Positions 14,040 to 54,809 of a DNA stretch of 64,000 nucleotides are shown here, in pieces (position 1 is the first letter of the stretch; every line of letters starts with the position of its first letter). This stretch comes from Herbidospora sakaeratensis. GTDB lineage: Bacteria; Actinomycetota; Actinomycetes; Streptosporangiales; Streptosporangiaceae. Where the stretch lies: the NCBI RefSeq assembly GCF_001570525.1, contig NZ_BBXC01000007.1:1310679-1374678 (forward strand). Direction: 5' to 3'. The position numbers and the translations under genes were made by a program. The notes under the pieces are model-generated. The model did no database searches, had not been told where the DNA came from, and worked only from the letters and a program-made list of their open reading frames with translations.

Positions 14040-14113
14040 GGGTGTCCTTCCGTTGAGTGACATTGCGTGATCATCGTGGGACGGCCCGCGTCCATGATCG
14101 AGTGCGCCGCGCG

Positions 14114-14119
14114 TACAGT
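14114..14119 (+). promoter_or_regulatory. -10 element of a leaderless promoter
   Basis: TACAGT ends 6 bases before ATG 14126; no RBS is present. Confidence 0.5.
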
Positions 14120-14125
14120 GACCAC

Positions 14126-15085
14126 ATGAAGATCGTCATTTTGGACGACTATCAGCGGGTGGCCCGCGAACTGGGCCCCTTCGACACCCTGACCGGCGAC
14201 GAGATCGTCGTCCTGCACGAGCACCTGGCCGATCTCGACGACCTGGCGGCGGCGCTGGCGGACGCGCGGGTCGTGGTCGCCATGCGCGAGCGCACCCCCT
14301 TCCGCGCCGAGACCTTCGCGCGGCTGCCCGGCCTGCGGCTGCTGGTGACCACCGGCATGGCCAACGCGTCGATCGACCTGGCGGCCGCCGCCGCCCACGG
14401 CGTGACCGTCACCGGCACGGCCGCGACCGGGTCGGCCACGAGCTCCAACACGGCCGAGCTGACCTGGGCGCTGATCCTGGCCTGCCGCCGCCACGTCGTC
14501 ACCGAGGACCGGGCGCTGCGCGAGGGCCGCTGGCAGACCACCGTGGGAACCGACCTGGCCCGCACCACCCTGGGCGTGCTCGGGCTGGGCCGCCTGGGCG
14601 GCCAGGTGGCGCGCATCGGGCAGGCGTTCGACATGCGGGTCATCGCCTGGAGCGAGAACCTCACCCCTGAGCGGGCCGCCGAGGCGGGCGCGACGTGGGT
14701 GCCCAAAGACGAGCTGTTCGCGCGCAGCGACGTGCTGACCGTCCACCTCAAACTGAGCGACCGCACCACCGGCCTGGTCGGCGCGGCCGAGCTGGCCGCC
14801 ATGAAACCGACCGCGATCCTGGTCAACACCTCCCGCGGCCCGATCGTCGACCAGGCCGCGCTGGCCGCCGCGCTCACCGCCGGCACGCTCGCCGGAGCCG
14901 GCCTGGACGTCTACGACACCGAACCCCTCCCGCCCGGCGACCCCCTGCGCGACGCGCCCCGCACGGTGCTGCTGCCGCACCTGGGGTACGTCACCGAGGC
15001 CGGCTACCGGTCGATGTACACGCAGGTCGTCGAGGACATCGCCGCCTGGAAGGCGGGCTCGCCGATCCGCGTGCTGACGGGCTGA
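14126..15085 (+). CDS. D-2-hydroxyacid dehydrogenase family protein
   Basis: A 319-residue NAD(P)-dependent dehydrogenase of the D-isomer-specific group, which interconverts 2-hydroxy and 2-oxo acids. The substrate-binding halves flank a Rossmann domain (GLGRLGGQVARIG, about 155-168). The catalytic Arg lies in NTSRGPIVD, the Glu in YDTEPLP and the His in LLPHLG. Length is normal. It begins at a leaderless ATG. Neighbours are unrelated secreted proteins, so the pathway is not indicated. Confidence 0.92.
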   Translation: MKIVILDDYQRVARELGPFDTLTGDEIVVLHEHLADLDDLAAALADARVVVAMRERTPFRAETFARLPGLRLLVTTGMANASIDLAAAAAHGVTVTGTAATGSATSSNTAELTWALILACRRHVVTEDRALREGRWQTTVGTDLARTTLGVLGLGRLGGQVARIGQAFDMRVIAWSENLTPERAAEAGATWVPKDELFARSDVLTVHLKLSDRTTGLVGAAELAAMKPTAILVNTSRGPIVDQAALAAALTAGTLAGAGLDVYDTEPLPPGDPLRDAPRTVLLPHLGYVTEAGYRSMYTQVVEDIAAWKAGSPIRVLTG

Positions 15086-16007: not shown

Positions 16008-16967
16008 ATGACTTCAGCCCGCGCCTTCTGGGAACAGCACACCTGCCTGCCGCTCAGCCTCGACGCCGACGTCGGCGACCTGCTGCGCTACCGCCGCCCC
16101 GGCGGGGCCTACGTGTCGGTCAACGTCGGCTACGCCCCGCACTCCCGGGAGGACGCGCTCGCCTACATCGGGCACTTCACCCGGGCGGTCGAGGCCCACC
16201 CCGACCTGGAGCTGGCCACGACCGTCGCGGAGATCGACGCGGCGGTGCCGGGCGACCGGATCGTGGTGGCCTTCGACCTGGAGGACTCCGCGCCGCTGGC
16301 CGGCGACCTGGACATGGTGGAGACGTTCTACCGGCTGGGCGTCAAGTCGCTGCTGCCGAGCTACAACAACGGCAACGCCGCCGGGGGCGGCTGCCTCGAC
16401 GCCGTCGACTCCGGGCTGACCGCCTACGGGCGCGACCTGGTGCGGCGGATGAACGAGGTCGGCATGCTGGTCGACGGGTCGCACTGCGGCACCCGTACCG
16501 GGCTGGACCTGTCGGAGGTCTCCGAGCGGCCGATGATCTACTCCCATTCGGCCATGCGCGGGGTGTGGGACCACGCCCGCAACATCACCGACGAGCAGGC
16601 CCGCGAGTGCGCCGCGACCGGCGGCGTCATCGGCATCCCCGGCGTGGGCATCTTCCTGGGCCCCAACACCGCCACTTTGGAGGCGTTCGTCGCGCACATC
16701 GACTACGCCGTCGAGCTGGTGGGGCCCGAGCACGTCGGCATCGGCAGCGACTACTCCTTCGACGCCGACACCATCATGGAGGACCTGGCGGCCAACCCCG
16801 AGCTGTTCCCCGAGGAGTACACCCGGTGGGGCACGATCCGGTTCGTCGAGCCGGAGACGACGCTGCTCGTCGAACGGGAACTGATCGGGCGCGGCTACCC
16901 GGAGGAGACGGTGCGCGGCATCCTGGGCGGCAACTTCCGGCGGGTGGCCGCCCAGGTCTGGACCTGA
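16008..16967 (+). CDS. M19-family membrane-type dipeptidase, cytoplasmic
   Basis: A 319-residue zinc dipeptidase of the renal dipeptidase family, which hydrolyses dipeptides and tolerates a D-residue at the C-terminal side. Visible metal ligands: Glu in FDLEDS, His in DGSHCG and His in YSHSA. The N-terminal ligand pair, normally HxD, reads HTC, so Asp appears replaced by Cys. No signal peptide is seen, so it should act in the cytoplasm. The start at 16008 has CAGGAT 7 bases upstream; an ATG at 15999 is in frame. It precedes a peptide importer operon and probably feeds the same pathway. Confidence 0.88.
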   Translation: MTSARAFWEQHTCLPLSLDADVGDLLRYRRPGGAYVSVNVGYAPHSREDALAYIGHFTRAVEAHPDLELATTVAEIDAAVPGDRIVVAFDLEDSAPLAGDLDMVETFYRLGVKSLLPSYNNGNAAGGGCLDAVDSGLTAYGRDLVRRMNEVGMLVDGSHCGTRTGLDLSEVSERPMIYSHSAMRGVWDHARNITDEQARECAATGGVIGIPGVGIFLGPNTATLEAFVAHIDYAVELVGPEHVGIGSDYSFDADTIMEDLAANPELFPEEYTRWGTIRFVEPETTLLVERELIGRGYPEETVRGILGGNFRRVAAQVWT

Positions 16968-16971
16968 GGTT

Positions 16972-16989
16972 CTTGTCTGATCGGACAAG
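16972..16989. terminator. Short stem-loop after the dipeptidase gene
   Basis: CTTGTC and GACAAG flank a 6-base loop just after the stop. It is a weak terminator or an operator near the promoter of the next operon. Confidence 0.3.
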
Positions 16990-17042
16990 GGCCGCCGGTT
17001 CGGGTTGTGCGATCGGCTGAGTACGACGGCCGCCGCGCGATC

Positions 17043-17048
17043 TAGCCT
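17043..17048 (+). promoter_or_regulatory. -10 element for the peptide-importer operon
   Basis: TAGCCT ends 6 bases before ATG 17055, so the eight-gene operon 17055-26779 probably starts with a leaderless message. Confidence 0.5.
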
Positions 17049-17054
17049 CGGCAC

Positions 17055-18407
17055 ATGACGACGCCGGAACGCTGGCTCGACGAGCACCTCGCCCCGATCC
17101 TGGCCGCCCGCGGCGTGCCGGGCGCCTCGGTCGCCGTGCTGGCCGGAGGCCGGGTGGTGACGGCCGCCGCCGGGGTGCTCAGCACCGCCACCGGCGTCGC
17201 GGCCACCCCCGACTCGGTCTTCCAGATCGGGTCGATCACCAAGTTGTGGACGAGCGCGCTGGTGCTGCAGCTCGTCGACGACGGCCTGGTCGACCTCGAC
17301 GTCCCGGTGCGGGTCTACCTGCCGGAGCTGGCGGCGGGCGACCCGTCGATCACCACCCGCCAGCTGCTCTGCCACGTCGCCGGGTTCGAGGGCGACGTCT
17401 TCACCGACACCGGCCGGGGCGACGACGCCGTGGAGCGCTACGTCGCCTCGATCCGGGACATCCCGCAGTTGTTCCCGCCCGGTGAGGTGTTCTCGTACAA
17501 CAACACCGGGTTCGTCGTCCTCGGCCGTCTGGTCGAGGTCATGCGCGGCGAGCCGTTCGACCGGGTGCTGGTCGGCCGGCTCGCCGCGCCCCTCGGGCTC
17601 ACCCACGTCTCGCCGAGCCCGTACGAGGCGATCCTGCACCGGGCCGCCGTCGGGCACCTGCCCGGCGAGGGCGGCGGCCCGGTGCCGGCGCCGACGTGGG
17701 CGCTGGCCCGTTCGAACGCGCCCGCCGGGTCGATGCTCGCGATGACCGCCCGCGACCTGGCCGGCTTCGCCGCCGCGCACCTGGAGGGCGGCGCGGGCCT
17801 GCTCAAGCCGGGAACGGTGGCGGCCATGTGGCGGCCCCAGGTGCGGCTGCCCCGCCTCAGCGGCATGGCCGCCGCGTGGGGGCTCGGCTGGGAACTGGAG
17901 GAGCACGACGGGCGGGCCGTCGTCGGCCACGACGGCGGGACCATCGGCCAGGCCGCCTTCCTGCGGCTCGTGCCCGACCGCGGCGTCGCCGTCGCGCTGC
18001 TGACCAACGGCGGCGACGTCCTGGGCGCCTACGCCGACGTCGTCGGGCATCTGCTGGGCGAGCTGGCCGGCGTCGCGCTGCCGCCCCGCCCGACGCCGCC
18101 CGCCGCGCCCGAGCCGATCGACCCGACGCCCTACCTGGGCCGCTACGCCGACACGATCTACGACATCACCGTCAGCCAGGATGCCGACGGCGCCATCTGG
18201 CTGGAGCGGGTCCCCAAGGACGTCATCGCCGAGATCGGGGAGAAGCCCCTGCGGACCCGGCTGGTGCACCTGGAGGGCGACTCGCTGATCGCGCTGGAGG
18301 CGATCCACGGCGTCCATCCCGTCTTCGCCTTCGTCGGACGCGACGAATCGGGGCTCGCGAAGCACATCCACTACGGCCGCGTGGTCTCGAGAAAAGGAAC
18401 GCCATGA
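17055..18407 (+). CDS. Serine hydrolase, S12 beta-lactamase-like family (copy 1)
   Basis: A 450-residue penicillin-binding-fold hydrolase. The SxxK motif is SITK at residues 60-63, the second motif is YNN at 148-150 and the third is HDG at 292-294. A C-terminal beta domain (about 350-445) follows, as in D-aminopeptidase/EstB relatives. There is no signal peptide, so the enzyme is predicted to be cytoplasmic and to act on imported compounds. It is the first gene of a tightly packed operon and overlaps the substrate-binding protein gene (ATGA). It resembles the copy at 23509-24870, with shared TDTGRGDDA and IGQAAFLR stretches. Substrate not proven; D-amino peptide or ester is suggested by context. 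Confidence 0.88.
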   Translation: MTTPERWLDEHLAPILAARGVPGASVAVLAGGRVVTAAAGVLSTATGVAATPDSVFQIGSITKLWTSALVLQLVDDGLVDLDVPVRVYLPELAAGDPSITTRQLLCHVAGFEGDVFTDTGRGDDAVERYVASIRDIPQLFPPGEVFSYNNTGFVVLGRLVEVMRGEPFDRVLVGRLAAPLGLTHVSPSPYEAILHRAAVGHLPGEGGGPVPAPTWALARSNAPAGSMLAMTARDLAGFAAAHLEGGAGLLKPGTVAAMWRPQVRLPRLSGMAAAWGLGWELEEHDGRAVVGHDGGTIGQAAFLRLVPDRGVAVALLTNGGDVLGAYADVVGHLLGELAGVALPPRPTPPAAPEPIDPTPYLGRYADTIYDITVSQDADGAIWLERVPKDVIAEIGEKPLRTRLVHLEGDSLIALEAIHGVHPVFAFVGRDESGLAKHIHYGRVVSRKGTP

Positions 18408-20002
18408 CGCGCATGAGGGCACTGGCGGCACTCGCCCTGACGGGTTCGGTCGGCCTGGCCGCCTGCGGCGGCGAAGCAGCCGAATCACCCGGCCAGGCCG
18501 CCGGGACGACCGGGTCCGCCTACGCGACCGGCAAGACGTTCACCCTGAACATCGCCGCCGACCCCGGCGCCCTCGACCCGCAGGGCGCGGCGACGAGCGG
18601 GCTGTTCGCCCTGACGCAGTACGCCTACGACAACCTGGTCGCCGTCGCGGCCGACGGCTCGATCCAGCCGCAGCTGGCCGAGGCGTGGACGGCCGAGGGC
18701 GCCACCCTCACCTTCACCGTCAAGAGCGGCGTCACCTGCGCCGACGGCGCGCCGTTCACCGCCCAGACCGTGGTCGACAACATCGCCTACGTGACCGACC
18801 CGGAGAACAAGAGCCCGTTCCTGGGCGTGTTCATCCCGGCCGGGGCCACCGCTTCGGCGGAAGGCGCCAAGGTGACGGTCAAGCTGCCCGCGCCCGCGCC
18901 GTTCGCGCTGAACCAGTTCTCCAACCTGCCGATGGTGTGCGACGCCGGGATGAAGAACCGCGCGAGCCTCAAGGCCGGCACCAACGGCACCGGGCCCTAC
19001 ACGCTCGTCGAGGCGGTGCCCTCCGACCACTACACCTACCAGCTGCGCCAGGGCTACACCTGGGGCCCCGGCGGCGCGACCACCGCCGAGCCGGGCCTGC
19101 CGGCCACGGTCGTCGTCAAGATCGTCGCCAACGAGACCACCGCCGCCAACCAGCTGCTGTCGGGGGCCGCCAACGCCGTCCAGATCACCGGCGCCGACGC
19201 CGCCCGCCTGAGCGGCGCGGGCCTGAAGTCGGTCGACACGCAGGCGCTCGTCGGCGAGCAGTGGTACAACCAGGCCGACGGCCACCCCACCGCCGACCCG
19301 GCGGTGCGGCTGGCGCTGACCCGGGCGCTCGACCTCAACCAGCTCCAGACCGCCATCACCTCCGGCAAGGGCGCCGCCGCCACCCAGCTGGCCGTGCTGG
19401 CGCCGAGCGGCTGCGCGGGCGACGCCGTGGCGGGCAACCTGCCCTCCTTCGACGCCGCCGCCGCGGGCGCCGGACTCGACGCGGCCGGATGGGTGAAGGG
19501 CGCCGACGGCGTGCGGGCCAAGGGCGGCGACCGCCTCACGGTCTCCCTGCTGTACGACGGCGCCCTGGGCAGCGCGGGCAGCGCCGCGGCCGAACTGGCC
19601 GTCGCGGCGTGGAAGGCGGTCGGCGTCGACGCCAAGGCCGTCCAGCAGAACCAGACCCAGCTGTCCGGCGCGATCTTCGGGACCGGCGGCTGGGAGGTCG
19701 CCTGGGTGCCGCTCAACGTCAGCACCCCCGACCAGGTGATGCCGTTCGTGTCCGGCCCGGCCGCGCCCAAGGGCACCAACTTCGCCGCCATCGACAACCC
19801 CGACTACCTCGCCGCCGCCAAGCGGGCCATGGCCGCCACCGGCGCCGAGGGGTGCGCCGACTGGTTCGCCGCCGAGCAGGCCCTCTACAAGGCCGCCGAC
19901 GTGGTGCCCTTCGCCAACAACGTGGTCCCCACCTTCGTCAAGGGCGCGGAGTTGTCCGTCGTGGGCAGCATCGTCCCGACCAGCATCCGGATGCTCGGCT
20001 GA
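18404..20002 (+). CDS. ABC transporter solute-binding lipoprotein, peptide family (SBP_bac_5)
   Basis: A 532-residue DppA/OppA-like binding protein. The signal peptide ends in lipobox GLAAC (Cys about residue 21), so it is anchored outside the membrane. The conserved opening FTLNIAADPGALDPQGA and the PQLAEAWTAEGATLTFTVKSGV region are typical of the family. A candidate RBS (AAAAGGAA) precedes ATG 18404. It delivers peptides or related solutes to the permeases encoded directly downstream. Confidence 0.93.
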   Translation: MTRMRALAALALTGSVGLAACGGEAAESPGQAAGTTGSAYATGKTFTLNIAADPGALDPQGAATSGLFALTQYAYDNLVAVAADGSIQPQLAEAWTAEGATLTFTVKSGVTCADGAPFTAQTVVDNIAYVTDPENKSPFLGVFIPAGATASAEGAKVTVKLPAPAPFALNQFSNLPMVCDAGMKNRASLKAGTNGTGPYTLVEAVPSDHYTYQLRQGYTWGPGGATTAEPGLPATVVVKIVANETTAANQLLSGAANAVQITGADAARLSGAGLKSVDTQALVGEQWYNQADGHPTADPAVRLALTRALDLNQLQTAITSGKGAAATQLAVLAPSGCAGDAVAGNLPSFDAAAAGAGLDAAGWVKGADGVRAKGGDRLTVSLLYDGALGSAGSAAAELAVAAWKAVGVDAKAVQQNQTQLSGAIFGTGGWEVAWVPLNVSTPDQVMPFVSGPAAPKGTNFAAIDNPDYLAAAKRAMAATGAEGCADWFAAEQALYKAADVVPFANNVVPTFVKGAELSVVGSIVPTSIRMLG

Positions 20003-20004
20003 CC

Positions 20005-20979
20005 ATGAAGACCCCGACGTCCGGCGTCAAGGTCGGCAGGTGGCCGCGCTTCGCGCTCCGGCGCGCGGCGCGGCTGCTCGCGTCGTTGTGGGTGCTGGTG
20101 ACCGCCTCGTTCCTGATGATCCACCTGGTGCCCGGCGACCCCGTGCGCGCAGCGCTCGGCCCGACCGCCCCCGCCGACCTGGTGCTCGCCCACAAGGAGG
20201 AGCTCGGCCTGCTCGACCCGCTGTGGCAGCAGTACGCGACCTTCCTCGGCCACCTGCTCCAGGGCGACCTGGGGGTGTCGATCGCCAGCCGGCTCCCCGT
20301 CGGCGAGGTGATCGCCCAGCAGCTGCCCGCCACCGCCGAGCTCGCCCTGCTGGCGTTCCTGCTGGCGGTGGCGGTCGCGGTGCCCGTCGGCGTGGTGATG
20401 GCGGTGCTCACCCGCCGGGGCCGGGGACGGCGCGCCGAACTGGCCTTCACCGGCACGAACGTCGTGGTCAGCGCGATCCCCGACTTCCTGCTCGGCGTCG
20501 GGCTGGTCTACCTGCTGGCGGTGCAGACGCACGTGTTCCCGGTCGCCGGGCGCGCCGGGCCCGACTCCTACGTGCTGCCGGTGCTGGCCCTGGCGGTCGG
20601 CCCGGCGGCGGTGTTGTCGCGCATCGTCCGGGTGGAGATGCTCGCGGTGATGGAGGCCGACTACGTGCGCACGGCGCGGGCCAAACGGCTCACCCCGGTG
20701 CGGGTGCACGTCGTGCACGCGCTGCCGAACGCGGTGACCGCGACGTTGACGATCGGCGGGCTGGCGCTCAGCTCGCTGGTGGCCGGCACGGTGCTGGTGG
20801 AGAACGTGTTCGCCTGGCCGGGGCTCGGCTCCTCGATCGTCTCCTCGATCGTCGCCAAGGACTATCCGCTGGTCCAGGGCACCGTGCTGGTGTACGGCGT
20901 CGGGGTGCTGCTGATCAACACGCTCGTCGACGTGGCGCTCGCGCTGCTCGACCCCCGCTCGGCGATCGGGGAGGCCTGA
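20005..20979 (+). CDS. Peptide ABC transporter permease (DppB type)
   Basis: A 324-residue membrane protein with about six transmembrane segments. The N-terminal MIHLVPGDP motif is characteristic of DppB/OppB permeases, and an EAA loop (DYVRTARAKRLTPVRV) contacts the ATPase. It starts 2 bp after the binding-protein stop and shares one base with the next gene, so coupled expression is expected. It forms the channel with the DppC half of the next protein. Confidence 0.93.
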   Translation: MKTPTSGVKVGRWPRFALRRAARLLASLWVLVTASFLMIHLVPGDPVRAALGPTAPADLVLAHKEELGLLDPLWQQYATFLGHLLQGDLGVSIASRLPVGEVIAQQLPATAELALLAFLLAVAVAVPVGVVMAVLTRRGRGRRAELAFTGTNVVVSAIPDFLLGVGLVYLLAVQTHVFPVAGRAGPDSYVLPVLALAVGPAAVLSRIVRVEMLAVMEADYVRTARAKRLTPVRVHVVHALPNAVTATLTIGGLALSSLVAGTVLVENVFAWPGLGSSIVSSIVAKDYPLVQGTVLVYGVGVLLINTLVDVALALLDPRSAIGEA

Positions 20980-22777
20980 TGAGGGCGCTGCGCAGGCCCG
21001 TCGGCCTGGTCGGGGTCGCGCTGCTGGCCCTGGTGCTGTTCGCCGCCGCCTTCGGGCCGGTGCTCTGGGGGGATCGGGCCGCCGCCGTCGACACCGCCGA
21101 CCTGCTGGCCGGGCCGTCGGCCGAGCACTGGATCGGCACCGACAACCTCGGCCGCGACCTGTTCGCCCGGGTGCTGGTGGCCGCCCGGCTCTCGATCCTG
21201 CTGGCGCTGGCGGCGACCGCGATCGGCATGGTGCTGGGCTTCCTCCTCGGGGCCGCGCCGATGCTCCTCGGGCGGCGGCTCGGCCGCCTGATCACCGCCG
21301 CCGTCAACGTCCTGGTCGCCTTCCCCGGGCTGCTGCTGGTGCTGTTCTTCGCCGTCGTCTTCGGCGTCGGCGCGCGCGGGGCCGCGCTCGCGGTCGGGCT
21401 GGCCGGCGCGCCCGCCTTCGCCCGGCTCTGCCACACCCTCATCGCCGGGGTCTCCGAACGCGACTACGTCGCGGCGGCCCGCATCGCCGGGGTCGGCCGG
21501 GTGCGCATGCTCTGGCGGCACGTGCTGCCCAACATCGCCGAGCCGGTCATCGTGTACGCGACGATGACGGCCGGCGCGGCCCTGCTCACCTTCGCGGGCC
21601 TGTCGTTCCTCGGGCTGGGGGTGCAGGCGCCGGACTACGACTGGGGCAAGCTCATGCAGGACGGCCTCAACGGCATCTACGTCCACCCGCTGGCCGCGCT
21701 CGGCCCCGGCATCGCCGTCGTGCTGGCCGGGCTGGCCTTCAACCTCACCGGCGAGGCGTTCGCGGCCGGGCCGCGCCGCACCCACGTCCTGCCCCCGGCC
21801 GGGCCGCCGTCGCCCGCCACCACCCCGGCCGCGACCACCGTGTTGTCGGCCGACGACCTGCGGGTGACCATCCCCGGCCCGAACGGGCCGATCCACGCCG
21901 TGCGCGGGGTCAGCCTCACCGTCGGCGACGGCGAGGCCGTCGGGGTCGTCGGCGAGTCGGGGTCGGGCAAGTCCGTGACGGCGCTGGCGGTCGCCGGGCT
22001 GCTGGAGCCGCCGGTCCGCGTGGAGGCCGGCCACCTGGCCGTCGCCGGGGAGGACCTGCTGGCCCCCGGCGCGAGCCGGCGGCTGGGCACCGCGCTGGCG
22101 GTGGTGTTCCAGGACCCGATGACGTCGTTCAACCCGGCCCACCGCGTCGGCCCGCAACTCGCCGAGGTGAGCCGCTTCCACCAGGGCATGGGCCGCAGGG
22201 CCGCGTTCGCGCGGGCGGTCGACCGGCTGCGCGCGGTGCGGATCGGCGACCCCGCGCGGCGGGCCCGGCAGTACCCGTTCGAGTTCTCCGGCGGCATGCG
22301 CCAGCGGGCCATGATCGGCATGGGCCTCATGGGCGAGCCCCGGCTCATCGTCGCCGACGAGCCCACCACCGCCCTCGACGTCACCGTGCAGCGGCAGGTG
22401 CTCGACCTGCTCGCCGACGTGCGCCGCGACACCGGCGCGGCGCTGCTGCTGATCAGCCACGACGTGTCGGTCGTCACCGACGTGTGCGACCGCGTCCTGG
22501 TCATGTACGCCGGTCGTGTCGTCGAGGAGCTGCCCGCCAAGGACCTGCGGGCGCTGGCGCGCCATCCGTACACGCGGGCGCTGGTGGCCGCCGTGCCGGA
22601 CATGGAGACCGACCTCGACCGGCCGCTCGCCGTCATCCCCGGGCTGCCTGTCGACCCCGTCGAGGCGCCGGCCGGATGCGCGTTCGCGCCCCGCTGCCCG
22701 CTGGCCGACGACCACTGCCGCGCGGTTCCGCCGCCGCTGCTCGACGGCGTGGCCTGCCATAAGGCCGGGGAGGCCCA

Positions 22778-22781
<4 letters not shown>
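20979..22781 (+). CDS. Fused DppC-type permease and DppD-type ATPase
   Basis: A 600-residue fusion. Residues 1-265 form a DppC-like permease (about five or six membrane segments, WIGTDNLGRDLFAR motif, EAA loop DYVAAARIAGVG). A Pro/Ala/Thr linker (about 268-290) joins an ATPase with Walker A GESGSGKS, signature FSGGMRQR, Walker B LIVADEP and the C-terminal oligopeptide domain with CAFAPRCPLA cysteines. Normally these are two proteins. The fusion keeps every motif, so it should be functional. It overlaps its neighbours at both ends. Confidence 0.93.
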
Positions 22782-23508
<727 letters not shown>

Positions 23509-23512
<4 letters not shown>

Positions 23513-24870
23513 ACCAGGCCCACTGGCAGCACCGCCTCGACGAACTGGCCGCCAAGCACGGTGTGCCCGGCGCCCAACTGGGCATCCTGCGCGACGACGA
23601 CCTGCTGACCCTGGCCACCGGCGTGCTGCACGCCGGGACCGGCCAGCCCGCCGCCCCCGACTCGGTCTGGCAGATCGGCTCGATCTCCAAGGTGTGGACG
23701 GCCACCGTCGTCATGCAGCTGATCGACGAGGGCCGCTTCACCCTCCAGACCCCGGTCGCCGAGGTGCTGCCCGAGTTCCGGCTGCGCGACCCCGGGACCA
23801 CCGCCGCCGTCACCGTCTGGCACCTGCTCACCCACACCAGCGGCATCGACGGCGACCTGTTCACCGACACCGGCCGCGGCGACGACGCCCTGGAGAAGTA
23901 CGTCGCCCTGCTGGCCGACTCGGCGCAGAACCACCCGATCGGCGCGACCTGGTCGTACTGCAACGCGGGCTACTCGGTGCTCGGCCGGATCATCGAGGTC
24001 GCCACCGGCCAGACGTGGGACCAGGCGATCAGGGAGAAGCTGTTCACGCCGCTCGGCCTGACCCGCACCACGACCCTGCCCGAGGAGGCGATGGTCTTCG
24101 GCCACGCCATGGGCCACGTCAAGGGCGGGGAGGAACCCGTGGTCGCGCCCGTGTGGGGGCTGCCGCGCGCGGTCGGCCCGGCCGGGCTCATCACCGCCCC
24201 CGTCGCCGACGTGCTCGCCTTCGCCCGCATGCACCTGCGCGGCGGGCTCGCCGCCGACGGCGCCCGGGTGTTGTCGGAGGAGAGCGCGGCGGCCATGTCG
24301 GCCTACCAGACCGACTGCCCCGAGAAGCGGCTGCTCGGCGACTCCTGGGGGCTGGGCTGGTTCCGCTGCGACTGGCGCGGCCACCGCGCCTACGGCCACG
24401 ACGGCAACACCATCGGCCAGGCCGCGTTCCTGCGCGTGCTGCCCGAGGCCGGGGTCGCCGTCGCGCTGCTCACCAACGGCGGCAACACCCACGACCTGTA
24501 CGCCGACCTCTACGACGAGATCTTCGCCGAGCTGACCGGCGTCCACCTGCCCGAGCCGTTCGAGCCCCCGGCCGAACCGGTGGCCACCGACCTGACCGCC
24601 CACGCCGGCGTGTACGAGCGCGAGTCGGTCCGCATGGAGGTCTTCGACGACGACGGCAAGCCGACCCTGCGCACCATCCTCACCGGCCCGCTGGCCGGGC
24701 TGGAGGACGACCCCGTGCAGACCTACGAGATGACCCCGGTCGAGCCCGGCGTGTACGCGGTCCGCCCCGAAGGCATGGAGACGTGGATCCCGGTGACGTT
24801 CTACTCCCTGCCGACCGGCGAGGAGTACGTCCACTACGGCGCCCGCGCGACCCCGAAGAAGCTCGGCTGA
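23509..24870 (+). CDS. Serine hydrolase, S12 beta-lactamase-like family (copy 2)
   Basis: A 453-residue relative of the copy at 17055. SISK is at residues 58-61, YCN at 150-152 and GHDG near 295, followed by a C-terminal beta domain. No signal peptide is present, so it is predicted cytoplasmic. GTG 23509 overlaps the ATPase stop (GTGA), with AAGGAG upstream. The two S12 enzymes flank the importer genes, which suggests duplication and different peptide preferences. D-aminopeptidase or esterase activity are both known in the family. Confidence 0.88.
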
Positions 24871-24872
24871 CC

Positions 24873-25658
24873 GTGCTCTCCCAACACCACGACGACCACC
24901 TCGACGCGGCCCGGGACGCCGGCGACCGGGCCCGCAAGGCCGGCGTGGAGATCCGGGAACTCCACGACCTGCCCGGCGCCCACGCCATGATCGACCTGCT
25001 CGCGGAGATCTGGGGCCGCCCGCTGATCACCGTGGAGTTCCTCCGCGCGCTGACCCGGGCCGGCAACTACGCCGCCGGCGCCTACGACGGCGACCGCCTC
25101 GTCGGCGTCTGCCTCGGCTTCCACGAGGAACCGGCGGCCCGCACCCTGCACAGCCACGTCGCCGGGGTCGTGCCGGGGCTGGCCGGCCGCGGCGTCGGCG
25201 CCGCGCTCAAACTCCACCAGCGGGCCTGGGCGCTGGCCCGCGGCATCCCGACGATCGAGTGGACCTTCGACCCGCTCGTCAGCCGCAACGCCTACTTCAA
25301 CATCGTCAAGCTGGGGGCGCTGCCGGTGGAGTACCTGCCGAACTTCTACGGCGCGATGCACGACGCCATCAACGGCGCCGACGACACCGACCGCCTGCTG
25401 ATGCGCTGGGACCTGCTCTCGCCGAGGGTCGCCGCCGCCTGCTCCGGCGCGCCCTTCGACCGCCCGGCCGCCGGTCCGGCCGGGCGACGCGTCGCCGTCC
25501 CCGACGACATCGAGGCGCTGCGCGCCGACGACCCGGCCGCCGCCGTAGCGTGGCGGCGGCGGCTCCGCGACGAACTGGCGCCGCTGATGACCTCCGGAGG
25601 CCGCGTCGTCGACTTCGACCGCGACCTCGGCTACCTCGTCGACCTGGAGACCCCATGA
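24873..25658 (+). CDS. GNAT-family N-acyltransferase linked to an N-succinylamino acid racemase
   Basis: A 261-residue acyltransferase. The acetyl-CoA-type pyrophosphate loop appears in VPGLAGRGVGAALK (about 100-115). Flanking strands include VAGVV and IEWTFDPLVSRNAYFN; the latter is characteristic of the GNAT group encoded beside NSAR/OSBS enzymes. That group is known to succinylate D-amino acids using succinyl-CoA, and such a role is inferred here. GTG 24873 lies 2 bp after the hydrolase stop, and the gene overlaps the racemase (ATGA). Confidence 0.87.
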   Translation: MLSQHHDDHLDAARDAGDRARKAGVEIRELHDLPGAHAMIDLLAEIWGRPLITVEFLRALTRAGNYAAGAYDGDRLVGVCLGFHEEPAARTLHSHVAGVVPGLAGRGVGAALKLHQRAWALARGIPTIEWTFDPLVSRNAYFNIVKLGALPVEYLPNFYGAMHDAINGADDTDRLLMRWDLLSPRVAAACSGAPFDRPAAGPAGRRVAVPDDIEALRADDPAAAVAWRRRLRDELAPLMTSGGRVVDFDRDLGYLVDLETP

Positions 25659-26779
25659 AGCTGCGCGGAATCGAACTGCGCCGCGTCTCGATGCCGCTCG
25701 TGGCGCCCTTCCGCACCTCGTTCGGCACCCAGACCGACCGCGACGTCCTGCTGGTGAAGGCGGTGACCGACGAGGCCGAGGGCTGGGGCGAGTGCGTCGC
25801 GCTGACCGACCCGCTCTACTCGCCCGAGTACGTCGACTCCCAGCAGGACGTGCTGCGCCGCTTCCTGCTGCCGAAACTCGCCTCGCCGGAGGGGGCCGCC
25901 GCGGTCGGCCGGTCGGGCGCGGCCGGGGTCGCGGGGGCGCTGCACGCGTACAAGGGACACCGCATGGCCAAGGCGGCCGTGGAAATGGCGATCCTGGACG
26001 CCGAACTGCGCGCCCTCGGCCGCTCCTTCGGCCGTGAACTCGGCGCCGTCGCCGACCGGGTGCCCAGCGGCGTCTCGGTCGGCATCCACGACTCGATCCC
26101 GGCGCTGCTGGCGGCCGTCGAGGGCTACCTGGACGAGGGCTACGCCCGCATCAAGCTGAAGATCGAACCCGGCTGGGACGTGGAACCGGTCGCCGCCGTC
26201 CGCGACCGCTTCGGCGGCGACGTGCTCCTGCAGGTGGACGCCAACACCGCCTACACCCTCCGCGACGCCCGCCACCTGGCGAGACTCGACGCCTTCGACC
26301 TGCTGCTGATCGAACAGCCGCTGGAGGAGGAGGACGTGCTCGGCCACGCCGCCCTGGCCCGGCAGCTGGCCACCCCGATCTGCCTCGACGAGTCGGTCGT
26401 GTCGGCGCAGACCGCCGCCGCCGCGATCACGCTCGGGGCCTGCCAGATCATCAACATCAAGCCCGGCCGCGTCGGCGGCTACCTGGAGGCCCGGAAGATC
26501 CACGACCTGGCCGCCGCGCACGGCGTCGCGGTCTGGTGCGGCGGCATGGTCGAGACCGGCCTCGGCCGGGCCGCCAACATCGCCCTGGCCGCGCTGCCCG
26601 GCTTCACCCTGCCCGGCGACGTGTCGGCCTCCGGCCGCTTCTACCGGACCGACATCACCGAGCCGATCGTGCTGGCCGACGGCCACGTCGCGGTGCCCAC
26701 CGGCCCCGGCCTGGGCGTGACCCCGATCCCCGAGCTGCTGGAGCGGGTGACGACGTCGGTGGAGTGGATCCCGTTCTGA
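25655..26779 (+). CDS. N-succinylamino acid racemase / o-succinylbenzoate synthase family enzyme
   Basis: A 374-residue enolase-superfamily enzyme (MenC2/NSAR-OSBS group). The catalytic KxK is K167/K169 in RIKLKIEP; metal ligands are D195, E220 and D245; the second catalytic Lys is K269 in INIKPGRVGG. The C-terminal GGMVETGLGRAANIALA pattern is diagnostic for this group. It could racemise N-succinyl amino acids or make o-succinylbenzoate for menaquinone. Coupling to a GNAT and a peptide importer, with no other men gene here, favours amino acid racemisation. Confidence 0.92.
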   Translation: MKLRGIELRRVSMPLVAPFRTSFGTQTDRDVLLVKAVTDEAEGWGECVALTDPLYSPEYVDSQQDVLRRFLLPKLASPEGAAAVGRSGAAGVAGALHAYKGHRMAKAAVEMAILDAELRALGRSFGRELGAVADRVPSGVSVGIHDSIPALLAAVEGYLDEGYARIKLKIEPGWDVEPVAAVRDRFGGDVLLQVDANTAYTLRDARHLARLDAFDLLLIEQPLEEEDVLGHAALARQLATPICLDESVVSAQTAAAAITLGACQIINIKPGRVGGYLEARKIHDLAAAHGVAVWCGGMVETGLGRAANIALAALPGFTLPGDVSASGRFYRTDITEPIVLADGHVAVPTGPGLGVTPIPELLERVTTSVEWIPF

Positions 26780-26789
26780 GGTGCGCGCC

Positions 26790-26795
26790 TATACT
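26790..26795 (+). promoter_or_regulatory. -10 element of a leaderless promoter for the PucR-type regulator
   Basis: TATACT, close to consensus, ends 6 bases before GTG 26802 and gives the regulator its own promoter separate from the operon upstream. Confidence 0.6.
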
Positions 26796-26801
26796 CCGGG
26801 C

Positions 26802-28412
26802 GTGAGTCAGCGACCGCGTGCGAGCCTCGGCCGGGTCCTCGACGACCTGGGCTCCACCCTCCTGGAACTCGTCGCGGGCGACGTCGACCACCCCGGGGGC
26901 ATCAGCGCCCTGGTCATCTTCGACCCGCTCGACGAACCCGTGCTCGCGCCCCGCTCGCTGGTGCTGGGCGTCGGCGTCGACCCCGCCGCCGGGGCGCTGC
27001 CCGCGCTGCTGCGCTCCCTCGGCGGCCACGACACGGTCGCCCTGGTCGTCAGGGCCCCGGTCGCGCTCACCCCGGAGGTGCGGGCGGCCGTCCAGGAGAG
27101 CGGCGTCGCCCTGATCGGCCTGCGCCGGGGCGCCACCTGGGCGCAGCTGACGGCCCTCATCCGGGCGATGCTCGCCGAGGGCGACATCGGCGTCACCGGC
27201 CACGAGTCCCTCGGCGGCCTGCCGTCGGGCGACCTGTTCGCCGTCGCCAACGCCGTGGCCGCGCTGCTCGACGCCCCCATCACCATCGAAGACCGCAGCT
27301 CCCGCGTGCTGGCCTTCTCCGGCCGCCAGGACGAGGCCGACCCCTCCCGCGTCGAGACCGTCATCGGCCGCCAGGTCCCCGAACGGTACGCCAACCGGCT
27401 GACCGAACTCGGCGTCTTCCGCGACCTCTACCGCTACCAGGCCCCCGTCGTCGTCAAACCGCAGGACCTCGGCTACGACGAGACCACCGTCCAGCGCGTC
27501 GCCATCGCCGTGCGCGCCGGCGACGAGGTCCTCGGCTCCATCTGGGCCGCCATGGACGGCGAGGTCGACCGCGAACGCACCCAGGCCCTGCTCGACGCCT
27601 CCAAGCTGGTCGCCCTCCACCTGCTGCGCCTGCGCGCCGGCGCCGACGTCCAGCGCCGGCTGCGCACCGACCTGATCGGCACCGTCCTGGAAGGCGGCGC
27701 CGGGGCCCGCGACGCCCTCGGCCGCCTCGGCCTGTCGGCCCGCCGCCTGGTCATCGTCGGCGCCGGCCTGCGGCCCGGCCATCCCCCCACCGACCTCGAA
27801 CGCCTGGCCGACGCCCTGTCGGTGCACCTGTCGGCGACCGTCCCGGCCTCGGCCGTGGCCGCCGTCGGCGGCACCGTCTACGGCCTGCTCCCGGTCGTCG
27901 TCACCACCGGCAGCCCCGAACAGCGCGCCGCCCGGCTGGCCGCCGACTTCGTCGACCGCGTCGACGGCAACCTGCACGCCATCGTCGCCGTCGCCCCCGC
28001 GGGGTCGGACATCAGCGGCATCGTCCACGGCAAGGCCCAGGCCGACCGCGTGCTGCGGGTGATGCGCGAAGGCCACACGGGCCTGCGGGTGGCCCAGCTC
28101 GACGACGTCCAGACCCTCGCCCTGGTCCTGGAACTGCGCGACCTGGCCGCCGCCAGAGACGAACGCCCCGGCGGCGCGATCGCCCGCCTGATGGACTACG
28201 ACGAACGCAACAACGCCGGCCTGGTCGAGACCCTGGAGGCCTGGCTCGACGCGCTGGGCGACGTGGGCAAGGCGGCGGCCGCCCTGTTCATCCACCCGAA
28301 CACGCTGCGCTACCGGCTCCGCCGCGTCACCGAGGTGGGCGAGATCGACCTGACCGACCCCGAACAGCGGTTCGCGGCGATGCTCCAGCTCAGGATCCTG
28401 TCCCCCCGCTGA
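26802..28412 (+). CDS. PucR-family transcriptional regulator
   Basis: A 536-residue activator-type regulator: N-terminal sensor region, a central GGDEF-like domain (about 270-400) and a C-terminal PucR HTH (about 470-530, with HPNTLRYRLRRV). PucR proteins control purine, proline, GABA and other amino acid or amine genes. It lies 22 bp after the racemase gene and is the obvious candidate regulator of the importer operon. GTG 26802 is chosen by the TATACT element; GTG 26781 is an upstream alternative. Confidence 0.9.
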   Translation: MSQRPRASLGRVLDDLGSTLLELVAGDVDHPGGISALVIFDPLDEPVLAPRSLVLGVGVDPAAGALPALLRSLGGHDTVALVVRAPVALTPEVRAAVQESGVALIGLRRGATWAQLTALIRAMLAEGDIGVTGHESLGGLPSGDLFAVANAVAALLDAPITIEDRSSRVLAFSGRQDEADPSRVETVIGRQVPERYANRLTELGVFRDLYRYQAPVVVKPQDLGYDETTVQRVAIAVRAGDEVLGSIWAAMDGEVDRERTQALLDASKLVALHLLRLRAGADVQRRLRTDLIGTVLEGGAGARDALGRLGLSARRLVIVGAGLRPGHPPTDLERLADALSVHLSATVPASAVAAVGGTVYGLLPVVVTTGSPEQRAARLAADFVDRVDGNLHAIVAVAPAGSDISGIVHGKAQADRVLRVMREGHTGLRVAQLDDVQTLALVLELRDLAAARDERPGGAIARLMDYDERNNAGLVETLEAWLDALGDVGKAAAALFIHPNTLRYRLRRVTEVGEIDLTDPEQRFAAMLQLRILSPR

Positions 28413-30387: not shown

Positions 30388-30460
30388 GCGAAGCAGGGTA
30401 GAAGGCGGCCCATCCGCGTGCCGACCGGTTTTTCCCGCTATGAGACGATGCCCCGGCAAA

Positions 30461-30561
30461 GGCGACGGCGGACGAGGAAACCGGTGCGAATCCGGCGCGG
30501 TCCCGCCACTGTGACCGGGGCGGCCCCTCGCCCCGGGAGCCAGGAGACTCACGCGGTCGCC
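30461..30561 (+). promoter_or_regulatory. Cobalamin (B12) riboswitch aptamer
   Basis: All hallmark elements are present in order: AAACCGGTGCGAATCC, CGCGGTCCCGCCACTGTGA (the B12-box core) and GAGCCAGGAGAC. A closing P1-like stem pairs GGCGAC (30461-30466) with GTCGCC (30556-30561). It lies 45 bases upstream of a [2Fe-2S] protein gene and should repress it when adenosylcobalamin is abundant. Confidence 0.92.
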
Positions 30562-30597
30562 TCCTCACGAGCCGGGGCGGATCTCCCCGAGAGAGGA
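30562..30597 (+). promoter_or_regulatory. Candidate SD-sequestering hairpin (riboswitch expression platform)
   Basis: TCCTC (30562-30566), directly after the aptamer, can pair with GAGGA (30593-30597), the likely Shine-Dalgarno of the gene at 30606. An inner CGGGG/CCCCG stem supports it. This suggests translational control. Confidence 0.55.
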
Positions 30598-30605
30598 CGG
30601 CGCCG

Positions 30606-30932
30606 GTGCGCGTCACCGTGTGCCGGGACTGCTGCTGCGGCAGCACCCGGAAGGTTCCCCATCTCGACCACGACGAGCAGATCCGGCTGCTGCGCGAGGT
30701 CGCCGAGGTGCGGGTGACCGAGTGCCTGGACGTCTGCGACCAGGCCAACGTCATCGTCGTCCAGCCGACCCCCGAAGGCCGCGCCGCCGGAGGCCGGCCG
30801 GTGTGGCTCGCCTTCGTCAACGACGGCCCGGCCACCGCCGACGTGGCGGCCTGGATCCGCGCGGGCGGGCCCGGACTCGCGCCGTTGCCCCCGATCCTCG
30901 AACTGCACCGCTTCACCGCGCCCGGTCGCTGA
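30606..30932 (+). CDS. (2Fe-2S) ferredoxin-domain protein under B12 riboswitch control
   Basis: A 108-residue thioredoxin-like [2Fe-2S] ferredoxin. Candidate cluster ligands are in VCRDCCCGS (Cys 6, 9, 10, 11) and in ECLDVCDQANV (near 40-44). Similar small proteins are found near cobalamin and cobalt-uptake genes, and the riboswitch upstream ties this one to B12 status. Its role is likely electron transfer or metal handling in cobalamin synthesis; this is inference. GTG start at 30606. Its 3' end overlaps the convergent glycosyltransferase by 20 bp. Confidence 0.85.
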   Translation: MRVTVCRDCCCGSTRKVPHLDHDEQIRLLREVAEVRVTECLDVCDQANVIVVQPTPEGRAAGGRPVWLAFVNDGPATADVAAWIRAGGPGLAPLPPILELHRFTAPGR

Positions 30933-54662: not shown

Positions 54663-54757
54663 CGCGCCGCACCATCGGGTCGGCCGGGTTGTGAGATGTG
54701 GGAATCATCCGCGTAACACGGCCGTTGACCGGAATGCGGCCCGCCGACGGGATCCGC

Positions 54758-54797
54758 CCGGACGAGACGCGCCGTACCCGGACTGCCAAGACGACGC
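54758..54797 (+). promoter_or_regulatory. Guanidine-III (ykkC-III) riboswitch aptamer
   Basis: The order CCGGACGAG - GCGCCGTACCCGG - AAGACGACGC matches the actinobacterial ykkC-III motif. CCGG pairs with CCGG for P1 and GCGCCGT with ACGACGC for the pseudoknot (one C-A mismatch). It lies 16 bases upstream of an SMR exporter gene, the classic target, and should turn it on when guanidine is bound. Confidence 0.88.
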
Positions 54798-54809
54798 TCC
54801 GAAAGGAGC
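54796..54809 (+). promoter_or_regulatory. SD-masking hairpin, guanidine riboswitch expression platform
   Basis: GCTCC-GAAA-GGAGC forms a perfect tetraloop hairpin that buries the GGAG Shine-Dalgarno. Its 5' arm shares bases with the aptamer's 3' strand, so ligand binding would open it. Confidence 0.7.

What the first reader, a model, noticed from the sequence alone, without database searches (positions are those of the whole stretch)
16008..28412. Candidate pathway for D-amino-acid-containing peptides: importer + two cytoplasmic S12 hydrolases + M19 dipeptidase + GNAT + N-succinylamino acid racemase + PucR
Genes 17055-26779 form one tightly packed operon (gaps of 2 bp or overlaps of 1-4 bp) in the order S12 hydrolase, peptide-binding lipoprotein, DppB, DppC-DppD fusion, DppF, S12 hydrolase, GNAT, NSAR/OSBS, with an M19 dipeptidase just upstream and a PucR regulator just downstream. 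Established: some NSAR enzymes work with a GNAT that succinylates D-amino acids, followed by racemisation and hydrolysis to L-amino acids; S12 relatives include D-aminopeptidases; M19 enzymes accept dipeptides with C-terminal D-residues. Neither S12 enzyme nor the M19 enzyme has a signal peptide, so they should act after import. Inference: the locus imports peptides with D-residues (peptidoglycan stem peptides or non-ribosomal peptides), cleaves them inside the cell and turns the D-amino acids into L-forms. The final desuccinylase (M20-type) is not in the window.
Basis: partly seen in the sequence, partly recalled or inferred. Interest (0 to 1): 0.85.

Follow-up and report, generated by a model that had tools for sequence, protein, structure and literature searches.

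The report
Actinobacterial D-peptide salvage operon
A soil actinobacterium (closest to Herbidospora) carries a conserved set of genes that most likely takes in peptides containing mirror-image (D) amino acids, cuts them up and turns the D-amino acids into ordinary L-amino acids; the core chemistry is already known, but I did not find its coupling to an importer and special peptidases described in the open papers searched.

Summary
The gene order and packing are confirmed. The genome is Herbidospora-like (Streptosporangiaceae). The enolase homologue is an N-succinylamino acid racemase (NSAR) of the crystallised Amycolatopsis type with the catalytic residues kept. It is not needed for menaquinone: the genome has its own menC overlapping menD. 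Across 80 named NSAR loci (33 genus labels) a core recurs: peptide ABC importer, S12 peptidase (often fused behind an S9 peptidase), M20 hydrolase, GNAT, NSAR, PucR. This genome keeps a relative on another contig, in an M19-M20-GNAT operon without NSAR, so the two loci look complementary. The genome's only two M19 genes lie at these two loci. S12B's nearest solved structures are an esterase and mostly D-acting enzymes. A palindromic operator candidate marks the operon promoter in three families. Best reading: import of D-residue peptides, cytoplasmic cleavage, and D-to-L inversion by succinylation, racemisation and desuccinylation. The inversion core is known (Sakai 2006); the importer and peptidase coupling looks like a new variant. 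No activity, substrate or DNA binding was tested.

The parts
16008..16967 (+). M19 family dipeptidase-like protein, 319 aa, divergent subgroup (HTC in place of HxD)
   Evidence: Pfam PF01244 243.6 bits; metal-site alignment; one of two M19 matches in the genome
16972..16989 (.). Palindromic operator candidate CTTGTCTGATCGGACAAG before S12A
   Evidence: Dyad upstream of S12A, SBP or S9-S12 in relatives, 0 hits for the reversed control in the same loci; the only 0-mismatch site in the genome
17055..18407 (+). S12A: S12 peptidase without signal-like segment, 450 aa, motifs SITK / YNN / HDG
   Evidence: Pfam PF00144; PDB hits; separate clade 100/100; motifs
18404..20002 (+). Family 5 solute-binding lipoprotein (SBP)
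   Evidence: Pfam PF00496 142.2 bits; lipobox LAAC; PDB hits to nickel- and peptide-type binding proteins
20005..20979 (+). DppB-type permease
   Evidence: Pfam PF00528 + PF19300
20979..22781 (+). DppC-DppD fusion (permease + ATPase + oligo_HPY)
   Evidence: Pfam
22778..23512 (+). DppF-type ATPase, 244 aa
   Evidence: Pfam PF00005 116.4 bits
23509..24870 (+). S12B: S12 peptidase with C-terminal beta-rich domain, 453 aa, motifs SISK / YCN / HDG
   Evidence: Pfam; model mean pLDDT 92.2; Foldseek; related to the C-terminal half of S9-S12 fusions
24873..25658 (+). GNAT N-acyltransferase, proposed D-amino acid N-succinyltransferase
   Evidence: Pfam PF00583 21.3 bits; GNAT fold; GNAT of this family in 70 of 80 NSAR loci
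25655..26779 (+). N-succinylamino acid racemase (NSAR/OSBS subfamily), 374 aa
   Evidence: 572 bits to Amycolatopsis NSAR 1sja; K167, K169, D195, E220, D245, K269, R272 present
26802..28412 (+). PucR-family regulator, candidate for binding the operator
   Evidence: Pfam PF13556 77.7 bits; PucR in 64 of 80 NSAR loci

Best explanation
The locus is a catabolic operon for peptides that contain D-amino acids. SBP and DppBCDF import the peptides (inferred from family). In the cytoplasm the S12 peptidases S12A and S12B release D-residues, helped by M19 enzymes on dipeptides (inferred from fold, neighbours and family). The GNAT puts a succinyl group on the free D-amino acid; NSAR racemises the N-succinyl amino acid; an M20 hydrolase removes succinate from the L-form, which makes the conversion one-way (inferred from the known pathway). 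In this genome the M20 is probably the one in a second locus on contig C8 (M19'-M20-GNAT'), which lacks NSAR, so the two loci would complete each other. PucR probably controls the operon through the dyad at 16972-16989 (inferred). Shown here: gene identities, order, conservation, an M20 relative in trans, a separate menC, the S9-S12 fusion relatives and the conserved dyad. Not shown: any activity, substrate or regulator-DNA binding. Peptides with hydrophobic or aromatic D-residues are more likely substrates than muropeptides (weak inference from substrates reported for related NSAR and GNAT enzymes).
For: NSAR: 572 bits to the Amycolatopsis enzyme 1sja; catalytic residues kept, and Arg at the position that is Gln in 7s8w. 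Not menaquinone: menC (428.8 bits, cut-off 288) overlaps menD by 4 bp in the same genome, while the window NSAR scores 64.7 on that model; futalosine family PF02621 in 0 of 7 Herbidospora genomes. Context in 80 named loci: GNAT 70, PucR 64, S12 62, DppB 61, M20 59, SBP 47, S9 44, M19 15; S12B-M20-GNAT-NSAR directly in a row in 42 of 80. Class sample of 296 genomes: 38 have an S12B-like match (E <= 1e-90); of 24 S9-S12B fusions among the 40 fetched stretches, 24 have SBP, DppB, DppCD, DppF and M20, 22 GNAT, 21 NSAR, 19 PucR. M20 relative (58-60%) outside the operon in 7 of 7 Herbidospora genomes; in the 3 whose surroundings I read (G000, G002, G006) it sits in M19'-M20-GNAT' without NSAR, while L038, L076, L080 and L104 have M19-M20-GNAT-NSAR. 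Only two M19 matches in the genome, both at these loci. S12B model: of the 10 distinct proteins ranked before the first class C beta-lactamase, 8 act on D-residues, judged from entry titles, the Pab87 paper and, for Ulm16, recall. Pab87 is D-stereospecific and lies near a D-aminoacylase and a dipeptide ABC transporter (PMC2651629). Dyad: 20 hits against 0 for the reversed control in the same loci.
Against: The best S12A and S12B match is IS11, a carboxylesterase, so esterase activity is possible. The SBP's best NCBIfam hit is NikA (113.8 bits, below its cut-off of 393), so a peptide solute is not proven. The window M19 has an altered metal motif. 12 of 16 fetched stretches with unfused S12B-like genes show no NSAR in view. 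The trans M20 locus carries no dyad: best 5 or more mismatches in 250 bp upstream of M19', M20 and GNAT' in all three loci examined, so co-regulation is not shown. The genome has 8 matches to the M20 dimerisation domain, so another M20 could serve. 10 of 80 loci lack a recognisable GNAT of this family. G001 lacks the importer and M19 at its locus. In whole Herbidospora genomes the loose dyad is not clearly enriched: 14 sites against 9 for the reversed control in 7 genomes, 5 of the 14 at the operon.
Confidence: 0.62

Rival explanations
1. Peptidoglycan or muropeptide recycling: the same operon, but the imported peptides are D-Ala / D-Glu containing stem peptides from cell walls.
Against: I recognised no muropeptide enzyme among the recurrent neighbour clusters, but they were not searched for systematically. 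NSAR and GNAT substrates in the passages seen are N-acyl phenylglycine, phenylalanine and methionine, and D-Phe, D-Tyr, D-Trp.
Confidence: 0.2
2. Detoxification of D-residue non-ribosomal peptides: S12 peptidases act as D-stereospecific resistance peptidases and the rest is clean-up.
For: D-stereospecific peptidases that hydrolyse peptide antibiotics are known (recalled; an abstract in the listing, PMC9541196, reports one for gramicidin A); fold neighbours include Lip3 DL-peptidase and ClbP.
Against: The S12 enzymes have no signal-like segment and the transporter has a binding lipoprotein, so it looks like an importer; a D-to-L route with desuccinylation is a catabolic design.
Confidence: 0.1
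3. The enolase homologue is an o-succinylbenzoate synthase serving menaquinone and the rest of the cluster is unrelated peptide uptake.
For: Window NSAR passes the NCBIfam TIGR01928 o-succinylbenzoate synthase cut-off (291.6 against 200.65 bits), so automatic annotation may call it OSBS.
Against: Separate menC beside menD in the same genome; pairing with GNAT and M20 in dozens of loci.
Confidence: 0.03
4. The S12 enzymes are esterases or beta-lactam hydrolases and the operon handles some other N-acylated or ester compound rather than D-peptides.
For: Best PDB match IS11 is a carboxylesterase; class A beta-lactamase-like genes occur in 7 of 80 named loci; NSARs accept many N-substituted amino acids (PMC7431475 passages).
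Against: S12B is fused to an S9 prolyl-oligopeptidase-family protein in 37 of 44 S9-cluster proteins, M19 genes recur, and the importer is of the Dpp/Opp type.
Confidence: 0.12

Closest known systems
Geobacillus kaustophilus D-to-L conversion pathway (GNAT, NSAR, M20 hydrolase; Sakai et al. 2006)
   Same: The same three catalytic steps are predicted: GNAT acylates the D-amino acid, NSAR racemises, M20 hydrolyses. The GNAT step and the citation were seen as passages in PMC8762209; the rest is recalled.
   Different: Here the set is joined to a peptide importer, two S12 peptidases and M19, and the M20 is in trans; relatives add S9-S12 fusions and an operator candidate.
Amycolatopsis NSAR/OSBS (PDB 1sja, 4a6g, 7s8w)
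   Same: 572 bits over the whole protein. The Amycolatopsis loci L110 and L111 carry M20-GNAT-NSAR-PucR plus S12A, SBP and DppB; L116 shows M20-GNAT-NSAR-PucR before its contig ends. The first 50 residues of the L110 NSAR agree with 1sja but for the start residue.
   Different: The Amycolatopsis loci have a different order and extra class A beta-lactamase-like and amidohydrolase genes; no S12B label and no M19 in view.
Pab87 CubicO peptidase of Pyrococcus abyssi (PDB 2qmi)
   Same: S12 catalytic motifs, C-terminal beta-rich domain, peptide ABC transporter nearby.
   Different: CubicO-specific motifs YAEAF/L, FFYLN and C-terminal ERY are absent from S12A and S12B; whole-chain overlay of S12B is poor (TM 0.64, rmsd 11.5).
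IS11 family VIII carboxylesterase (PDB 7spn)
   Same: Closest whole-chain structural match to S12B (TM 0.86, 31% identity); reported as S12-type domain plus lipocalin domain.
   Different: Characterised as a carboxylesterase from a hydrothermal metagenome (PMC9972953 abstract and passages); its gene context was not examined.

Membership tests
NSAR/OSBS subfamily of the enolase superfamily | Catalytic Lys residues and three metal ligands; closest to characterised NSARs | tested here: met
   K167, K169, D195, E220, D245, K269 present; best hits 1sja, 7s8w, 4a6g. Residue roles recalled.
NSAR/OSBS subfamily of the enolase superfamily | Racemisation of N-succinyl amino acids | not testable with these tools
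   Needs an enzyme assay.
Sakai-type D-to-L inversion pathway | GNAT next to NSAR | tested here: met
   4-bp overlap in the window; GNAT in 70 of 80 named loci.
Sakai-type D-to-L inversion pathway | M20 desuccinylase in the same operon | tested here: not met
   Absent from the window operon; a relative lies in the same genome on contig C8, 59% to the G002 operon copy; 59 of 80 named loci have M20. Operon membership as a defining feature is recalled.
Sakai-type D-to-L inversion pathway | GNAT acylates D-amino acids with succinyl-CoA | not testable with these tools
   Needs an assay; no close solved relative.
S12 serine peptidases | SxxK, YxN and HxG motifs | tested here: met
   S12A SITK/YNN/HDG; S12B SISK/YCN/HDG.
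CubicO (Pab87) peptidases | C-terminal lipocalin-type barrel | tested here: inconclusive
   S12B model has a C-terminal beta-rich domain (361-453); whole-chain TM 0.86 to IS11 and 0.64 to Pab87.
CubicO (Pab87) peptidases | Motifs YAEAF/L, FFYLN and C-terminal ERY | tested here: not met
   None found in S12A or S12B (motifs).
M19 dipeptidases | HxD, bridging Glu and two His of the metal site | tested here: inconclusive
   Window M19 has HTC instead of HxD; Glu, both His, Arg and Asp kept. The second M19 on C8 reads THND. Ligand roles recalled.
D-stereospecific resistance peptidases | Peptidase that inactivates peptide antibiotics | not tested
   Family recalled; no biosynthetic cluster search was made and no activity is testable here.

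The most novel reading that the evidence does not exclude
Actinomycetes carry a dedicated, operator-controlled system for eating peptides of mixed handedness: a Dpp-type importer delivers them to a two-headed S9-S12 peptidase (or its split descendant S12B), and a GNAT-NSAR-M20 module inverts the released D-amino acids. This would be the natural job of the Amycolatopsis NSAR/OSBS that has served as a model of enzyme promiscuity.
Probability: 0.42. Interest if true: 0.75.

Novelty: new variant of a known kind. Interest (0 to 1): 0.6.

Why it matters
If true, it gives a physiological role to the NSAR branch of the enolase superfamily in actinomycetes, corrects a likely automatic annotation as o-succinylbenzoate synthase, and names a testable route by which soil bacteria recover carbon and nitrogen from D-amino acid peptides. 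The S9-S12 fusion and the operator candidate are new handles for finding the substrate.

Tried and rejected
Menaquinone role for the enolase homologue: rejected. Second NSAR in the genome: the other enolase-superfamily hits listed for G000 are 34% identical or less (the list is cut off). S9 orthologue elsewhere in Herbidospora: none of the 24 listed matches exceeds 39% identity. Dyad at the trans M20 locus: none with 3 or fewer mismatches within 250 bp upstream of M19', M20 or GNAT' in L139-L141 (earlier scan). One search does not speak to these three loci, because their M19' genes were left out by its 40-bp gap rule. Whole-genome scan with the loose dyad (at most 1 mismatch): 14 sites against 9 for the reversed control in 7 genomes; 5 of the 14, including the 3 exact ones, are at the operon. 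GNAT: no close relative in the PDB by sequence (best E 0.67); the fold search gives generic GNATs, so acyl donor and acceptor cannot be read off. The N-terminal M19 metal motif could not be aligned between the two M19 groups. Paper searches: (all ten allowed); judged from the listings and the passages I opened, none describes this operon. This covers the open library only; the listed papers were mostly not opened.

Limits: gene calls in relatives come from a simple codon-usage caller of mine, and labels from BLAST against window and relative proteins. The 80 named loci are the best of at least 581 matches to an NSAR alignment and are not independent; genus labels were typed from the record titles and include two that are not genera. 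Flanks are at most 10 kb, so absences are lower bounds; for example the NSAR of G039:C53 lies outside stretch L196. Of the 56 matches listed, 40 were fetched as new stretches, 10 more are second copies inside those stretches, 4 were already held (window, G003:C75 twice, G009:C455) and 2 were not fetched (G148:C204, G009:C11). The dyad pattern was chosen after seeing the window site and then loosened. The S12 tree carries the tool's warning about long branches.

Full report
OBSERVATION. From S12A (17055) to NSAR (26779) the gaps are -4, +2, -1, -4, -4, +2 and -4 bp; M19 lies 87 bp upstream and PucR starts 22 bp downstream. Pfam supports every family; the GNAT is only just above its cut-off by sequence, but its AlphaFold2 model (mean pLDDT 92.9) has the GNAT fold with an extra C-terminal part.

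NSAR, NOT MENAQUINONE. The enolase homologue scores 572 bits against the Amycolatopsis N-acylamino acid racemase 1sja and keeps K167, K169, D195, E220, D245 and K269, plus R272 at the position that is Gln in entry 7s8w (roles recalled). It passes the NCBIfam o-succinylbenzoate synthase model TIGR01928 (291.6 bits against a cut-off of 200.65), so it may be annotated as OSBS. The same genome has a separate menC, 428.8 bits against a cut-off of 288, overlapping menD by 4 bp; the window gene scores 64.7 bits on that model. Futalosine-pathway family PF02621 is found in 0 of 7 Herbidospora genomes, menD above its cut-off in 7 of 7. Menaquinone therefore should not need the window gene.

A CONSERVED CORE. 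One scan of genome contigs with an NSAR alignment gave 80 named loci. My gene calls and labels show a recurrent order: SBP, DppB, DppCD, DppF, S9 and/or S12, M20, GNAT, NSAR, PucR. Counts in the 80 loci, with 33 genus labels typed from the titles: GNAT 70, PucR 64, any S12 62, DppB 61, M20 59, S12B 56, SBP 47, S9 44, M19 15. S12B, M20, GNAT and NSAR stand directly in a row in 42 of 80. Flanks are at most 10 kb, so absences are lower bounds. As background, the 8.6-Mb genome has 14 PF00144 matches. In the seven Herbidospora genomes (window and L031-L036) S12A, S12B, GNAT, NSAR and PucR are present in 7 of 7, importer and M19 in 6 of 7, M20 inside the operon in 1 of 7.

S9-S12 FUSION. In the 99 loci L031-L129, 37 of 44 proteins of the S9 cluster carry a C-terminal S12 domain related to S12B at 55-69% identity; Pfam confirms both halves in the one examined. 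A less biased sample of 296 genomes of the class has an S12B-like match (E <= 1e-90) in 38. I fetched 40 stretches; 24 hold S9-S12B fusions, and of these 24 have SBP, DppB, DppCD, DppF and M20, 22 GNAT, 21 NSAR and 19 PucR. Of the other 16 stretches, with unfused S12B-like genes, 12 show no NSAR in view. A tree of 83 S12 domains puts all 19 S12A in one clade (100/100) and the window S12B among fusions on starred branches, so most simply the S9 half was lost in this lineage; the tool warns of long branches. No S9 orthologue is left elsewhere in Herbidospora (24 matches listed, none above 39% identity).

THE MISSING M20. In G002 (Herbidospora), two Planotetraspora and Catellatospora the M20 lies exactly between S12B and GNAT. 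The window operon lacks it. A relative 58-60% identical to the G002 copy lies elsewhere in 7 of 7 Herbidospora genomes. In the three whose surroundings I read (G000, G006, G002) it sits in an M19'-M20-GNAT' operon without NSAR. Other Streptosporangiaceae have M19-M20-GNAT-NSAR (L038, L076, L080, L104). The two loci therefore look complementary. The genome has 8 matches to the M20 dimerisation domain in all, so the assignment is likely, not proven. A PF01244 search finds only two M19 genes in the whole genome: the ones at these two loci. The window M19 has HTC where the other reads THND; Glu, two His, Arg and Asp are kept, so its activity is uncertain.

S12 CHEMISTRY. Both S12 enzymes keep SxxK, YxN and HxG. 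The S12B model (mean pLDDT 92.2) has a C-terminal beta-rich domain at 361-453. Foldseek's best match is IS11, a carboxylesterase with a lipocalin domain (TM 0.86); the other distinct proteins before the first class C beta-lactamase (rank 25) are SurE, Pab87, Lip3 DL-peptidase, Ulm16, ClbP, alkaline D-peptidase, R61 DD-peptidase, dHy1 and an FmtA-like protein. Eight of these ten act on D-residues, judged from entry titles, the Pab87 paper and, for Ulm16, recall. Pab87 prefers D-Ala-p-nitroanilide, cuts D-Ala from muropeptides and lies near a D-aminoacylase and a dipeptide ABC transporter (PMC2651629: abstract and parts 1-2 of 4 of the main text). The CubicO-specific motifs are absent from S12A and S12B, so neither is filed as CubicO. 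The IS11 paper was seen as abstract and passages (PMC9972953).

OPERATOR. A dyad, CTTGTCTGATCGGACAAG, lies at 16972-16989, 83 bp before the S12A start. The pattern TTGTCNNATNNGACAA with at most one mismatch gives 20 hits in the window and 139 loci (2.78 Mb); 20 of 20 are intergenic and lie before S12A (7), SBP (12) or an S9-S12 gene (1); the reversed pattern gives 0. L033 and L050 are one site, so 19 are distinct; 10 come from one unnamed genus, and three families are represented (Streptosporangiaceae, unnamed family f21, Micromonosporaceae). Among transcription-unit starts in 126 loci, at most two mismatches within 200 bp upstream occur for S12A 9 of 21, SBP 15 of 36, DAA 7 of 21, PucR 5 of 59, S9 1 of 24 and unlabelled genes 5 of 717 (near-copies included). 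In seven whole Herbidospora genomes the loose pattern has 14 sites against 9 for its reversed control; 5 of the 14, including the 3 exact ones, are at the operon. The pattern was chosen from the window site and then loosened. PucR is the obvious candidate binder; this is inference. The M20 locus on C8 does not carry the dyad.

HOW IT WORKS. Import by SBP-DppBCDF, cleavage by S12A, S12B and M19, acylation of the D-amino acid by GNAT, racemisation by NSAR, desuccinylation by the M20 in trans. The GNAT-NSAR-M20 logic follows Sakai et al. 2006, of which I saw only a passage and the citation in a review (PMC8762209); the rest is recalled. NSAR substrates in the passages seen include N-acyl phenylglycine, phenylalanine and methionine (PMC8142540), and the GNAT acylates D-Phe, D-Tyr and D-Trp. 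This favours hydrophobic D-residues over D-Ala and D-Glu, weakly.

NOVELTY. The inversion core is known; the coupling to an importer, S12 / S9-S12 peptidases and PucR was not found in the listings, which cover the open library only. The Amycolatopsis loci L110, L111 and L116 also hold M20-GNAT-NSAR-PucR, with S12A, SBP and DppB in the first two, which suggests a physiological setting for a much-studied promiscuous enzyme. I rate it a new variant of a known kind.

Noticed in passing
window 30431-30570: Cobalamin riboswitch (Rfam RF00174, 55.8 bits) just upstream of a 108-aa protein with an N-terminal Cys cluster at 30606-30932 that has no NCBIfam match.
   Followed up: partly
window 54733-54800: Guanidine-III riboswitch (Rfam RF01763, 49.6 bits).
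   Followed up: no
window 14102-15085: D-2-hydroxyacid dehydrogenase family protein, two genes upstream of M19; below the cut-off of all 21 NCBIfam models listed.
   Followed up: no
G000:C7:1157750-1158985 and G000:C12:97340-98566: Each of the seven Herbidospora genomes has two menD matches above the family cut-off; in G000 only the C7 copy lies beside the menC match.
   Followed up: no
L177-L189 (10 of these 13 loci), upstream end: The operon sits beside ClpX- and ClpP-like genes (named by eye from the L177 sequences) with an Amidohydro_3 gene between; the dyad lies before that kind of gene in 7 of 21 unit starts.
   Followed up: partly
G003:C23:60251-60484: Fragment matching the first 78 residues of NSAR at 63% with one stop codon, possibly a remnant of a second NSAR gene.
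   Followed up: no
L110, L111, L124: Class A beta-lactamase-like genes (PF13354, 175 bits in L110) beside S12A in these NSAR loci; role unknown.
   Followed up: no
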